NCBI RefSeq assembly: GCF_016921115.1
Contig: NZ_JAFFZS010000002.1
Span: forward strand, 124,001-188,000
DNA from: Streptomyces actuosus
GTDB taxonomy: Bacteria > Actinomycetota > Actinomycetes > Streptomycetales > Streptomycetaceae
Direction of reading: 5' to 3'
Length of the DNA stretch: 64,000 nt
The notes beneath the pieces are model-generated. The model made no database searches. It was not told where the DNA came from and was given only the letters and a program-made list of their open reading frames with translations. Numbering within the stretch: the first letter of the stretch is position 1; the number at the start of each line of letters is the position of its first letter. This document shows, piece by piece, positions 57,148-59,908 of this stretch. A program made the position numbers and the translations under genes.

Positions 57148-58080
57148 ATGCCAGCGAGCTATGCCTACCTCGGCCCCGAGGGCACCTTCACCGAAGTCGC
57201 CCTGCGCACCCTTCCGGAGGCGGCGACCCGGGAGCTGATCCCGTACGTGTCCGTGCAGTCCGCGCTGGACGCGGTCCGTGCGGGCGAGGCCGAGGCCGCG
57301 TTCGTGCCGATCGAGAACTCCGTCGAGGGCGGCATCACCACCACCCTGGACGAGCTGGTCGCCGGCGCACCGCTGATGATCTACCGCGAGGTGCTGCTGT
57401 CGATCACCTTCGCGCTGCTGGTCCGGCCCGGCACGCAGCTGTCGGACATCAAGACGGTCTCCGCCCACCCGGCCGCGCAGCCGCAGGTACGCAACTGGCT
57501 GCGCGGCCACCTCCCCGACGCCGTGTGGGAGTCGGCCGCCTCCAACGCGGACGCCGCGCGGCTGGTCCAGGAGGGCCGCTACGACGCCGCCTTCGCGGGC
57601 GAGTTCGCCGCCGCGCGGTACGGGCTGGAGGCCCTGGAGACGGGCATCCACGACGCCGAGAACGCGCAGACCCGGTTCGTGCTGGTGGGCCGTCCGGCCC
57701 GGCCCGCGGCTCCGAGCGGGGCGGACAAGACCTCCGTCGTGCTGTGGCAGCGCGACGACCACCCCGGCGGTCTGCGCGACCTGCTGGGAGAGTTCGCGAC
57801 GCGCGGCATCAACCTGATGCTGCTGCAGTCCCGCCCGACCGGGGCCGGGATCGGCAACTACTGCTTCTGCATCGACGCCGAGGGCCACATCTCCGACCGC
57901 CGGGTGGCGGAGGCGCTGATGGGGCTGAAGCGGATCTGCCTCCAGGTGCGCTACCTCGGCTCGTATCCGCGCGCGGACGTGGAGCCGGGCCATGAGCAGA
58001 CGCCGCGGCCGGGGACGTCGGACGCGGAGTTCGTGTCGGCGGCGGACTGGGTCGCACGATGCCAGGACGGGCGTTTCTAG
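57148..58080 (+). CDS. prephenate dehydratase
   Basis: A 310-residue enzyme that converts prephenate to phenylpyruvate in phenylalanine synthesis. The catalytic domain has AYLGPEGTFTEVAL, IENSVEGGITTTLDEL and the active-site Thr-Arg-Phe in NAQTRFVLVG. A C-terminal ACT domain (DDHPGGLRDLLGEFATRGINLMLLQSRPTG) binds Phe; the usual ESRP reads QSRP here. The ATG at 57148 gives the standard N-terminus. No chorismate mutase domain is fused, as expected in actinobacteria. Confidence 0.95.
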   Translation: MPASYAYLGPEGTFTEVALRTLPEAATRELIPYVSVQSALDAVRAGEAEAAFVPIENSVEGGITTTLDELVAGAPLMIYREVLLSITFALLVRPGTQLSDIKTVSAHPAAQPQVRNWLRGHLPDAVWESAASNADAARLVQEGRYDAAFAGEFAAARYGLEALETGIHDAENAQTRFVLVGRPARPAAPSGADKTSVVLWQRDDHPGGLRDLLGEFATRGINLMLLQSRPTGAGIGNYCFCIDAEGHISDRRVAEALMGLKRICLQVRYLGSYPRADVEPGHEQTPRPGTSDAEFVSAADWVARCQDGRF

Positions 58081-58525
58081 CCACCTGCGCCAGTCCTACC
58101 TGCCTATCTTCGTTATCCACAGGAGTTATCCACAGGGAGCCATCTCGACCTGGGGACAAGTCGACTCGGAGGCATGACCGAGTCGACAAATCGGCCCCCG
58201 GGTACCCGATGCGGCCTCTGCCCCCACAGGTCACCATTCGTCCACCTGTTTCCTTTGAACAATCCTTTGGAGCGAACACTTTCCACTCGAAAGTGCGGAC
58301 AAAAGAGGTTTACCCCGGGAATCCTCAGGTGCGAACCTGATCACGGAGTGATCGATTCCGAAGTCCACAGATCTTGCTCACAGCCTGTGGATAACTTCCG
58401 GACGGTGATCGAACTCTGTGGACAACGACGCCTCCGCCGAGCCTCCAAGTCCCGCTTCCCCCAAGGAAATCGAGTCAACGCACCGCCGCGCGCGTGCCCC
58501 GTCCCAGGGAGTGAGACACTTTCCC
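58081..58525. other. DnaA-box cluster between pheA and serS
   Basis: Perfect DnaA boxes occur at 58113-58121 (TTATCCACA), 58126-58134 (TTATCCACA), 58386-58394 (TGTGGATAA) and 58417-58425 (TGTGGACAA). One-mismatch copies lie at 58151-58159 (TGGGGACAA) and 58294-58302 (TGCGGACAA). The stretch is unusually AT-rich for this DNA and no credible gene is inside. It looks like a DnaA-binding (titration or regulatory) locus, not a full origin: no dnaA/dnaN neighbours, and far fewer boxes than a Streptomyces oriC. Confidence 0.75.
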
Positions 58526-58558: not shown

Positions 58559-58630
58559 GTATCGTCCCATTCGGTATGCCCCGACATAGTGAGTCGTGGG
58601 CCGCGACCGCGCACCGGTAGCCTTGACCGC

Positions 58631-59908
58631 GTGATTGACCTTCGCCTGCTCCGTGAGGACCCCGACCGAGTGCGCGCATCACAGCGCGCCCGTGGAGAGG
58701 ACGTCGCGCTCGTCGACTCCCTCCTGTCTGCCGACGAGCGGCGCAGGTCCTCCGGCGTCCGCTTCGACGAGCTGCGTGCCGAGCAGAAGGCACTGGGCAA
58801 GCAGATCCCCAAGGCCTCCGCCGACGAGAAGGCCGAGCTCCTCAAGCGCGCCGAGCAGCTGAAGGCCGACGTGAAGGCCGCCGACGCCGAGCGCGACGCC
58901 GCCGACGCCGAGACCCAGGGGCTGCTGATCCAGCTCGGCAACCTCGTCCACCCCGACGTCCCCGTCGGCGGCGAGGAGGACTTCGTCACGCTGGAGACGC
59001 ACGGCACCGTCCGCGACTTCTCCACCGAGGGCTTCGAGCCCAGGGACCACCTGGAGCTCGGCCATCTGCTGGGCGCCATCGACGTCGAGCGCGGCGCGAA
59101 GGTGTCGGGCTCCCGCTTCTACTTCCTCACCGGCGTGGGCGCCCTGCTGGAGCTCGCGCTGGTGAACGCGGCGATGGCCCAGGCGACGGCCGCCGGCTTC
59201 ACCCCGATGCTCACGCCGGCGCTGGTGCGCCCGCAGTCGATGGCCGGCACCGGCTTCCTCGGCCAGGCCTCCCAGGACGTCTACCACCTCGACAAGGACG
59301 ACCTGTACCTGGTCGGCACCTCCGAGGTGGCGCTGGCGGCCTACCACATGGACGAGATCATCGACGCCGAGAAGCTGCCGCTGCGCTACGCGGGCTTCTC
59401 CCCCTGCTTCCGCCGCGAGGCCGGCTCGCACGGCAAGGACACCCGCGGCATCTTCCGCGTCCACCAGTTCGACAAGGTGGAGATGTTCTCCTACGTCTCC
59501 CCGGAGGAGTCGCGGGAGGAGCACCGCAGGCTGCTGGAGTGGGAGAAGCAGTGGCTGACGTCGCTGGAGCTGCCGTTCCGCGTGATCGACGTCGCCTCCG
59601 CCGACCTCGGCGCCTCGGCGTCCCGCAAGTTCGACTGCGAGGCCTGGATCCCGACCCAGGGCAAGTACCGCGAGCTGACGTCGACCTCGGACTGCACCGA
59701 GTTCCAGTCGCGCCGCCTGTCCATCCGGGTCCGTGAGGGCAAGTCGGTCAAGCCGCTCGCCACCCTCAACGGCACGCTCTGCGCCGTACCGCGCACGATC
59801 GTGGCCATCCTGGAGAACCACCAGCAGGCCGACGGCTCCGTCCGCGTCCCCGAGGTGCTGCGTCCCTACCTCGGGGGCCGGAAGGTCCTGGAGCCGGTGG
59901 CCAGGTGA
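58631..59908 (+). CDS. seryl-tRNA synthetase
   Basis: A 425-residue class II synthetase that charges tRNA-Ser. The N-terminal antiparallel coiled-coil arm (residues about 28-105) contacts the long variable arm of tRNA-Ser. Motif 2 is [25 protein letters not shown], and motif 3 is [19 protein letters not shown]. The GTG at 58631 ([15 protein letters not shown]) is the natural family start; no clear ribosome site precedes it. Its stop overlaps the GTG of the HAD gene by 4 bp. Three tRNA-Ser genes lie in this window. Confidence 0.96.

What the first reader, a model, noticed from the sequence alone, without database searches (positions are those of the whole stretch)
58081..58430. DnaA-box cluster outside oriC, between pheA and serS
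Four perfect 9-bp DnaA boxes (two TTATCCACA 4 bp apart, one TGTGGATAA, one TGTGGACAA) plus two one-mismatch copies lie in about 310 bp of AT-rich non-coding DNA. E. coli-type TTATCCACA boxes are rare by chance in 72% GC DNA. From memory, S. coelicolor has a high-affinity DnaA cluster named D78 near oriC whose deletion raises replication initiation; this could be its counterpart. That link is recollection, not a search result.
Basis: partly seen in the sequence, partly recalled or inferred. Interest (0 to 1): 0.75.

Follow-up and report, generated by a model that had tools for sequence, protein, structure and literature searches.

The report
Helix-phased DnaA sink beside serS
About 80 kb from the replication-starter gene dnaA, between two housekeeping genes, lies a cluster of predicted binding sites for the DnaA protein, found across hundreds of Streptomyces genomes with spacings that change mostly in steps of one DNA-helix turn, so it likely folds into a DnaA-trapping loop that would restrain replication.

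Summary
Four perfect DnaA boxes (58113+, 58126+, 58386-, 58417-) are the only perfect TTRTCCACA in the window; chance gives 0.008 per spacer. The doublet is unique in the genome. dnaA lies about 80 kb away.

All 80 named relatives fetched (79 Streptomyces, 1 Kitasatospora) hold at least two perfect boxes in the spacer. 345 of 392 same-genus genomes match the two-arm pattern, reversed control 0. It is likely the counterpart of the S. coelicolor cluster said to restrain initiation; the primary paper was not held.

New result: spacing. Of 76 genomes whose arm distance differs from 243 bp by 3 or more, 69 lie within 2 bp of -10, +10, +20 or +30. All 33 inferred element-to-element length changes of 5-70 bp up to box 4 measure 8-12, 20-21 or 32 bp. 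Two neighbouring stretches are only weakly phased. A second near-oriC cluster shows similar steps. Phasing continues to the serS promoter.

Likely mechanism: a phased, looped DnaA sink, possibly coupled to serS. Binding, looping and replication effects were not tested.

The parts
57148..58080 (+). pheA, prephenate dehydratase (upstream neighbour)
   Evidence: NCBIfam NF008865, 292 bits over cut-off 219; ORF
58113..58121 (+). DnaA box 1, TTATCCACA (left arm)
   Evidence: column conservation 0.96 in 79 spacers
58126..58134 (+). DnaA box 2, TTATCCACA (left arm)
   Evidence: conservation 0.99
58151..58159 (-). weak DnaA box TTGTCCCCA; with the next bases it forms the conserved anchor GGGGACAAGTCGAC (58152-58165)
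   Evidence: conservation 0.994; the anchor-to-box-3 pattern is present in 79 of the 81 loci not selected on it
58182..58191 (+). conserved GTCGACAAAT element; TCGACAAA starts 31 bp after the anchor start
   Evidence: conservation 0.99; spacing 31 in 149, 30 or 32 in 3, 41 in 3, 52/53 in 2 of 157
58237..58245 (+). conserved TTCGTCCAC, box-like element (two mismatches as TCGTCCACC)
   Evidence: conservation 0.97
58284..58291 (+). conserved CACTCGAA landmark in the middle of the spacer
   Evidence: distances from TCGACAAA fall at 99-101, 108-111, 118-120 and 129 in the 137 loci where both were found
   Evidence: conservation 0.70
58344..58360 (.). imperfect palindrome CGGAGTGATCGATTCCG beside the right arm
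   Evidence: sequence; similar stretches seen by eye in matched sequences, lost in some loci; partner protein unknown
58361..58369 (+). weak box AAGTCCACA; TCCACAG starts 22 bp before box 3
   Evidence: offset -22 in 150 of 150 loci where found, of 159
58386..58394 (-). DnaA box 3, TTATCCACA (right arm)
   Evidence: conservation 1.00
58417..58425 (-). DnaA box 4, TTGTCCACA (right arm)
   Evidence: conservation 0.95; box 3-box 4 distance 29-31 in 120, 20-21 in 5, 41 in 1 of 126 loci where found
58474..58478 (+). GTCAA landmark right of the boxes
   Evidence: box4-GTCAA 43-47 in 89, 54-57 in 21, 66 in 1, other values in 5 of 116
58618..58623 (+). predicted -10 element TAGCCT of a leaderless serS promoter
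   Evidence: conservation 0.994 over CGGTAGCCT; TAGCCT, TAACCT or TAGGCT in 16 loci of other genera; promoter reading is inference
58631..59908 (+). serS, seryl-tRNA synthetase (GTG start chosen by conservation)
   Evidence: TIGR00414, 444 bits over cut-off 302

Best explanation
This spacer holds a conserved near-oriC DnaA-box cluster of Streptomyces, likely the counterpart of S. coelicolor D78, and it is predicted to trap DnaA in one helix-phased, looped complex that would restrain replication initiation. Shown by sequence: two inward-facing arms of perfect boxes (two + boxes left, two - boxes right) lie 260 bp apart; weak boxes and GTCGACA elements between them are conserved; distances between neighbouring elements change mostly by whole helical turns; the locus lies about 80 kb from dnaA here and 75-95 kb in seven relatives. 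Inferred: DnaA loads on the perfect boxes, spreads over the weak ones, and the arms are joined by DnaA-DnaA contacts with all elements on one face of the helix. Inferred: the locus is copied soon after oriC, so its extra boxes lower free DnaA and delay re-initiation. Weaker inference: because the phase runs on to the serS promoter, the complex may also tune serS.
For: Conservation: 80 of 80 pheA loci fetched from genome contigs have perfect boxes in the spacer (50 have four, 29 three, 1 two). 345 of 392 same-genus genomes match TTRTCCACA-N240-270-TGTGGAYAA, control 0; the anchored pattern adds 13 and none, 358 of 392, though a few matches are other loci. Phasing: anchor-to-box-3 length is 243 bp here and in 52 of 79 unselected loci, window included. 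Of 163 genomes with another length, 87 are within 2 bp of 243; of the other 76, 69 lie within 2 bp of -10, +10, +20 or +30. Intervals step alike: 31/41/52; 100/110/120/129; 81/91/101; 31/20-21/41; 45/55/66; box4-serS 192/203/214/225. Parsimony on a 158-taxon pheA+serS tree gives 87 length changes of 5-70 bp inside: 60 measure 9-12 bp, none 13-19; V(10.5) is 0.74 against 0.18 and 0.15 in two neighbouring stretches. 0 of 100,000 draws from the pheA-stop-to-anchor sizes reach it. Replication: a second near-oriC cluster shows lengths 155-159 and 164-170 (148 of 150 listed) and 51-56 and 61-65 (74 of 75 listed). Position: in seven chromosomes 52 of 141 TTATCCACA lie within 100 kb of dnaA, 3.2 expected. 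Literature: S. coelicolor DnaA complexes on both sides of the oriC spacer pair into a hairpin-like structure, and the long domain II should let DnaA reach distant boxes (PMC5448010, section 3.5 read). In E. coli oriC one whole turn between boxes is tolerated, a part turn is not (PMC4285127 passage citing Woelker and Messer).
Against: No binding, looping or replication measurement was possible. Phasing also covers the stretch from GTCAA to serS, which has no perfect boxes here (43 events, V 0.67), so a promoter- or other-protein-driven constraint is not excluded. The control is not flat: pheA stop to anchor V 0.18 (p 0.017), and 0.31 in the unselected subset. 7 of the 76 off-mode lengths are off step (-6, -4, three at -3, +7, +17), and off-step values occur in several intervals. 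The best-fitting period varies from 9.5 to 10.9 bp between intervals. Events depend on parsimony and pattern-defined landmarks; the cluster-2 tally has no tree control. Outside the genus box2-box3 is 274 in two and 243-245 in two of 16 loci, off phase relative to 260. 34 of 392 same-genus genomes were found by none of the three patterns. A review table gives TTGTCCACA, not TTATCCACA, as the high-affinity S. coelicolor box (PMC4285127), and a passage names a high-affinity box inside oriC (PMC3411110), so the cluster need not hold the strongest sites. One review doubts that B. subtilis clusters matter much (PMC5295017). The D78 paper was not read.
Confidence: 0.6

Rival explanations
1. The array is mainly a transcriptional control region of serS: DnaA, alone or with other proteins, acts from phased upstream sites on the leaderless serS promoter, and DnaA trapping is a side effect.
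For: Phasing continues from box 4 to the serS start (45 events, V 0.60; GTCAA-serS 43 events, V 0.67). The predicted -10 is conserved (0.994). serS stays beside the boxes in 16 of 20 loci fetched from other genera.
Against: Boxes lie about 200-520 bp upstream of the start. The inward-facing arms and the clustering of TTATCCACA near oriC (52 of 141) fit a replication role better. Later papers report that the S. coelicolor clusters repress untimely initiation (passages).
Confidence: 0.2
2. A datA-like or DARS-like catalytic site: the complex changes the nucleotide state of DnaA (ATP hydrolysis or ADP release) rather than only holding it.
For: A defined, phased architecture is more than a simple sink needs. 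datA was first thought to be a sink and was later found to promote DnaA-ATP hydrolysis with IHF (PMC5295017 passage).
Against: No IHF-type site was looked for and there are no biochemical data. In B. subtilis one re-added cluster at various places partly relieved early initiation, as a sink would (PMC5295017 passage).
Confidence: 0.1
3. Another DNA-binding protein, or a general insertion bias, sets the 10-bp steps; the DnaA boxes merely sit inside.
For: GTCGACA elements and a palindrome at 58344-58360 do not look like good DnaA boxes. The control stretch shows weak phasing, and the stretch right of the boxes is phased too.
Against: Two neighbouring non-coding stretches show V 0.15-0.18 against 0.74. 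Gap segments in 56 pairs are not neighbour duplications (mean identity 0.54, null 0.51; 6 of 189 at 0.8 or more, noisy). The box 3-box 4 distance itself steps by about 10, and a second DnaA-box cluster repeats it.
Confidence: 0.08
4. Chance cluster of DnaA-like words.
For: None found.
Against: 0.008 boxes expected, 4 seen; perfect boxes in 80 of 80 loci; control pattern 0 in 392 genomes.
Confidence: 0.01

Closest known systems
S. coelicolor near-oriC DnaA-box cluster
   Same: DnaA boxes clustered outside but close to oriC in the same genus; later papers say such clusters repress untimely initiation (passages). The pheA-serS spacer of S. violaceoruber NRRL S-981 (L069) has boxes 1-3 perfect, box 4 with one mismatch, and the modal 243-bp arm length.
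   Different: Locus identity not verified. Helical quantisation, conserved weak elements and reach to serS were not seen in any passage read; whether the 2006 paper reports them is unknown.
Escherichia coli datA
   Same: Non-coding box cluster outside oriC that restrains initiation (passages).
   Different: datA has five boxes, depends on IHF and promotes DnaA-ATP hydrolysis (passages). Here two arms face inward across about 250 bp; neither an IHF site nor hydrolysis was tested.
Bacillus subtilis oriC-proximal DnaA-box clusters (Okumura et al. 2012, seen only as cited)
   Same: Several box clusters outside oriC; removing all six causes early initiation (passage).
   Different: Strong effect only when all six are removed; the same review doubts a significant role; no phased architecture is noted in the passages seen.
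Streptomyces oriC
   Same: DnaA boxes on both sides of a spacer that pair into a hairpin-like structure by electron microscopy (PMC5448010 section).
   Different: In the seven oriCs examined most boxes have one mismatch, a few are TTGTCCACA and none is TTATCCACA; the serS cluster uses TTATCCACA and lies far from dnaA and dnaN.

Membership tests
Near-oriC DnaA-box cluster that restrains initiation (D78 / B. subtilis cluster type) | Several consensus DnaA boxes in non-coding DNA, beyond chance | tested here: met
   4 boxes in 313 bp, 0.008 expected per spacer; perfect boxes in 80 of 80 loci
Near-oriC DnaA-box cluster that restrains initiation (D78 / B. subtilis cluster type) | Outside oriC but close to it | tested here: met
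   about 80 kb from dnaA here; 75-95 kb in 7 of 7 other chromosomes tallied
Near-oriC DnaA-box cluster that restrains initiation (D78 / B. subtilis cluster type) | High-affinity DnaA binding | not testable with these tools
   no binding data; perfect consensus words only; a review lists TTGTCCACA as the high-affinity S. coelicolor box
Near-oriC DnaA-box cluster that restrains initiation (D78 / B. subtilis cluster type) | Deletion raises initiation | not testable with these tools
   repression of untimely initiation reported for the S. coelicolor and B. subtilis clusters in passages
S. coelicolor D78 in particular | Same locus as the published cluster | tested here: inconclusive
   primary paper not held; same spacer cluster in S. 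violaceoruber L069
E. coli datA | IHF-dependent DnaA-ATP hydrolysis | not tested
   no IHF-site search made; biochemistry not possible
DARS | Regenerates DnaA-ATP from DnaA-ADP | not testable with these tools
   biochemical property
Second replication origin | AT-rich unwinding element with replication genes nearby | tested here: inconclusive
   lowest 50-bp GC in the spacer is 46%; the box array beside dnaA lies about 80 kb away

The most novel reading that the evidence does not exclude
D78 and its sister cluster near the rhomboid gene are rigid, helix-phased DnaA machines rather than loose sponges. DnaA bound to every element sits on one face of the DNA, the two arms close a loop, and the same phased assembly reaches the serS promoter, so free DnaA, replication timing and serine-tRNA charging are coupled through one complex conserved across Streptomycetaceae.
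Probability: 0.35. Interest if true: 0.8.

Novelty: new member of a known kind. Interest (0 to 1): 0.6.

Why it matters
Whether DnaA-box clusters outside oriC are passive sponges or shaped machines is open in most bacteria. Here evolution has run the helical-phase experiment many times: length changes of whole turns were kept and part-turn changes are rare. That predicts a loop and gives a simple bench test (+5 against +10 bp) in a laboratory Streptomyces. It also raises a link between replication control and a tRNA synthetase, and it offers a natural measure of DnaA assembly geometry in a group whose DnaA has an unusually long domain II.

Tried and rejected
Chance: rejected by simulation, control patterns and conservation. 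Structured RNA: Rfam gives only one sub-threshold antisense match inside serS (26 bits, cut-off 45), taken as chance. Coding function of the spacer: mechanical ORFs cross it, but length changes of 10 and 11 bp dominate, not multiples of three. Tandem-duplication origin of the 10-bp steps: not supported (pairwise gap placement is noisy). Conservation beyond the family: 20 fetched pheA loci from six other families (picked by hand from the 193 of 197 genomes with a match) carry no perfect box in about 3 kb; serS was found beside pheA in 3 of them by a rough motif. The first chance script timed out and was rewritten.

Rows dropped: one search aligned 79 of 81 spacers (two of 700 bp or more left out); its conservation counts a majority gap as conserved, so I cite only columns with letters. 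One search used 159 of 161 loci (two lacked the anchor pattern); the tree has 158. The 80 genome-contig loci are the best 80 of 571 candidates, which were themselves capped. The 80 outlier loci are 80 of the 85 genomes, taken only because their arm length was 244-273; set A (genome contigs plus window) is not chosen on length and gives V 0.84. Genomes with a changed anchor or box 3 are not measured, and the number at exactly 243 was not counted there. Landmark pairs were found in 85 to 158 of 159 loci. The upstream control used 74 of 81 loci. Searches found matches in 176 and 163 of 224 genomes but listed 150 and 75 matches, which are what tallies; one genome is listed twice. One search searched nine genomes; its list was cut, so tallies seven.

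Full report
What is there. The spacer between pheA (57148-58080) and serS (GTG start 58631) is 550 bp, 59% GC in a 72.6% GC window. Four perfect DnaA boxes form two arms that face each other: two + boxes 13 bp apart on the left, two - boxes 31 bp apart on the right, with 260 bp from box 2 to box 3. No other perfect TTRTCCACA exists in the window, and simulation expects 0.008 per spacer. In the whole genome TTATCCACA occurs 7 times: 3 here, 1 at C111:228676, 2 at C111:320579/320635 and 1 elsewhere. dnaA is on the same contig, starting about 80 kb away.

The organism. I take the genus to be Streptomyces because 79 of the 80 closest named pheA loci are titled Streptomyces (87-95% identity), the other Kitasatospora aureofaciens.

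Conservation. In 80 of 80 of these named loci the spacer holds perfect boxes: four in 50, three in 29, two in 1. In the alignment of 79 spacers boxes 1-4 score 0.96, 0.99, 1.00 and 0.95, against a mean of 0.78. Other conserved pieces are the weak box TTGTCCCCA at 58151, GTCGACAAAT at 58182, TTCGTCCAC at 58237, TCCACAG at 58364 and the predicted serS -10. The second one-mismatch box of the finding (58294) is not conserved (0.70). Of 392 same-genus genomes 345 match the two-arm pattern, control 0; a few matches seen in lists are other loci (for example G088 and G698). In the family 70 of 150 genomes and 9 of 17 genera match. Of 20 matching loci fetched from other genera, 14 show both pheA and serS beside the boxes, 2 serS only, 1 pheA only, and 3 are other loci. 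One genus (g103) matches in only 2 of 38 genomes, but those two have box doublets 10 bp apart and a box2-box3 distance of 243-245, outside the pattern's range, so that near-absence may be an artefact. Another (g92) matches in 1 of 14. Twenty loci from six other families have no perfect box.

Helical phasing. Arm-to-arm distance was measured from the anchor GGGGACAAGTCGAC to box 3 (243 bp here). Searches scanned 392 genomes for every length from 213 to 273 except 243. Lengths found: 233 (5), 237 (1), 239 (1), 240 (3), 241 (14), 242 (54), 244 (19), 250-254 (47), 260-265 (16), 271 (2), 273 (1). Nothing falls at 245-249, 255-259 or 266-270. In 159 sequenced loci the intervals show similar steps: anchor-TCGACAAA 31/41/52; TCGACAAA-CACTCGAA 100/110/120/129; CACTCGAA-TCCACAG 60/71/81/91/101; box 3-box 4 20/31/41; box 4-GTCAA 45/55/66; GTCAA-serS 146/157/167/178/189, each with neighbours of 1-2 bp and some with stray values.

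Controls. To handle shared ancestry, length changes were inferred by parsimony on a pheA+serS tree. Inside, 87 events of 5-70 bp give V(10.5) 0.74. From pheA stop to anchor, 71 events give 0.18 (p 0.017); the intergenic stretch upstream of pheA, 37 events, gives 0.15. The 33 events between the anchor and box 4 all measure 8-12, 20-21 or 32 bp. Over the whole anchor-to-box-3 distance 20 of 24 events of 3-60 bp lie within 2 bp of a multiple of 10, against 38 of 77 for pheA stop to anchor, which is chance level. The unselected set alone gives V 0.84 inside and 0.31 in the control, so the control is not flat, but 0 of 100,000 draws from control sizes reach the observed values. Best-fitting periods range from 9.5 to 10.9 between intervals. 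The p-values treat events as independent and are only a guide. Gap segments do not look like duplications of neighbours. The box cluster between a rhomboid-like and a DUF881-like gene, C111:320430-320643 (gene names from recall of the ORFs), shows similar steps: of 150 listed lengths 122 are 155-159, 26 are 164-170, one 146 and one 176; of 75 for the other pair 53 are 51-56, 21 are 61-65 and one 75. No tree control was made there.

Mechanism. Known: Streptomyces DnaA has a long domain II thought to let it reach distant boxes, and its complexes on both sides of the oriC spacer pair into a hairpin-like structure (PMC5448010 section 3.5; PMC13270200 passages). At E. coli oriC a whole-turn change between boxes is tolerated and a part-turn change is not (PMC4285127 passage). 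Inferred: the two arms close a loop with all elements on one face, giving a high-capacity DnaA trap. TTATCCACA is concentrated within 100 kb of dnaA (52 of 141 sites in seven chromosomes, 3.2 expected) yet absent from the seven oriCs examined, which carry mostly one-mismatch boxes and a few TTGTCCACA. Against a simple strong-outside, weak-inside reading, one review table lists TTGTCCACA as the high-affinity S. coelicolor box (PMC4285127) and one paper names a high-affinity box within oriC (PMC3411110 passage). The reported repression of untimely initiation by the S. coelicolor clusters fits a sink.

What stays open. Phasing extends to the serS promoter, where no perfect boxes lie in this window, so serS control by the same complex, or a second protein, is possible. 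Off-phase distances appear in some other genera. No binding, loop or replication measurement was made. In the full-text searches made (open-licence papers only, seen as listings and chosen passages) I saw no report of helical quantisation in this cluster, but the 2006 paper was not readable.

Noticed in passing
L094 1931-2144 (G000 C111:320430-320643): Second conserved DnaA-box cluster on the other side of oriC, between a rhomboid-like and a DUF881-like gene (names recalled), also with about 10-bp spacing steps; box pair found in 7 of 7 other chromosomes at +22 to +36 kb from dnaA.
   Followed up: partly
L095 1177-1265 (G000 C111:228676): Third conserved group, one TTATCCACA plus three one-mismatch boxes (one perfect in L240) at identical offsets in 8 of 8 loci, about 34-35 kb before dnaA; just upstream of an ORF that looks like a membrane transporter (recalled, not tested).
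   Followed up: partly
G000 C111:191764, just right of the window: A further perfect box (TTGTCCACA) about 9.6 kb beyond the cluster; 6 of 7 other chromosomes have TTATCCACA about 9-11 kb from it on the dnaA side.
   Followed up: no
L093 and L221-L226 (oriC regions): Seven oriCs carry mostly one-mismatch boxes and no TTATCCACA; perfect TTGTCCACA in three of them.
   Followed up: partly
58344-58360: Imperfect palindrome CGGAGTGATCGATTCCG near the right arm, recurring roughly as GGAA-N7-TTCC in relatives read by eye; possible site of an unknown dimeric protein.
   Followed up: no
58618-58633: Highly conserved TAGCCT seven bases before the serS GTG start, suggesting a leaderless serS transcript.
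   Followed up: no
G124 C1:6251474-6252174: A second, interrupted DnaA-like fragment (61% and 78% identity in two pieces, one TGA inside) far from the main dnaA gene in one relative.
   Followed up: no
G196 C3:537848 and C27:28606: The second cluster appears on two contigs of one genome, perhaps a duplication or an assembly artefact.
   Followed up: no
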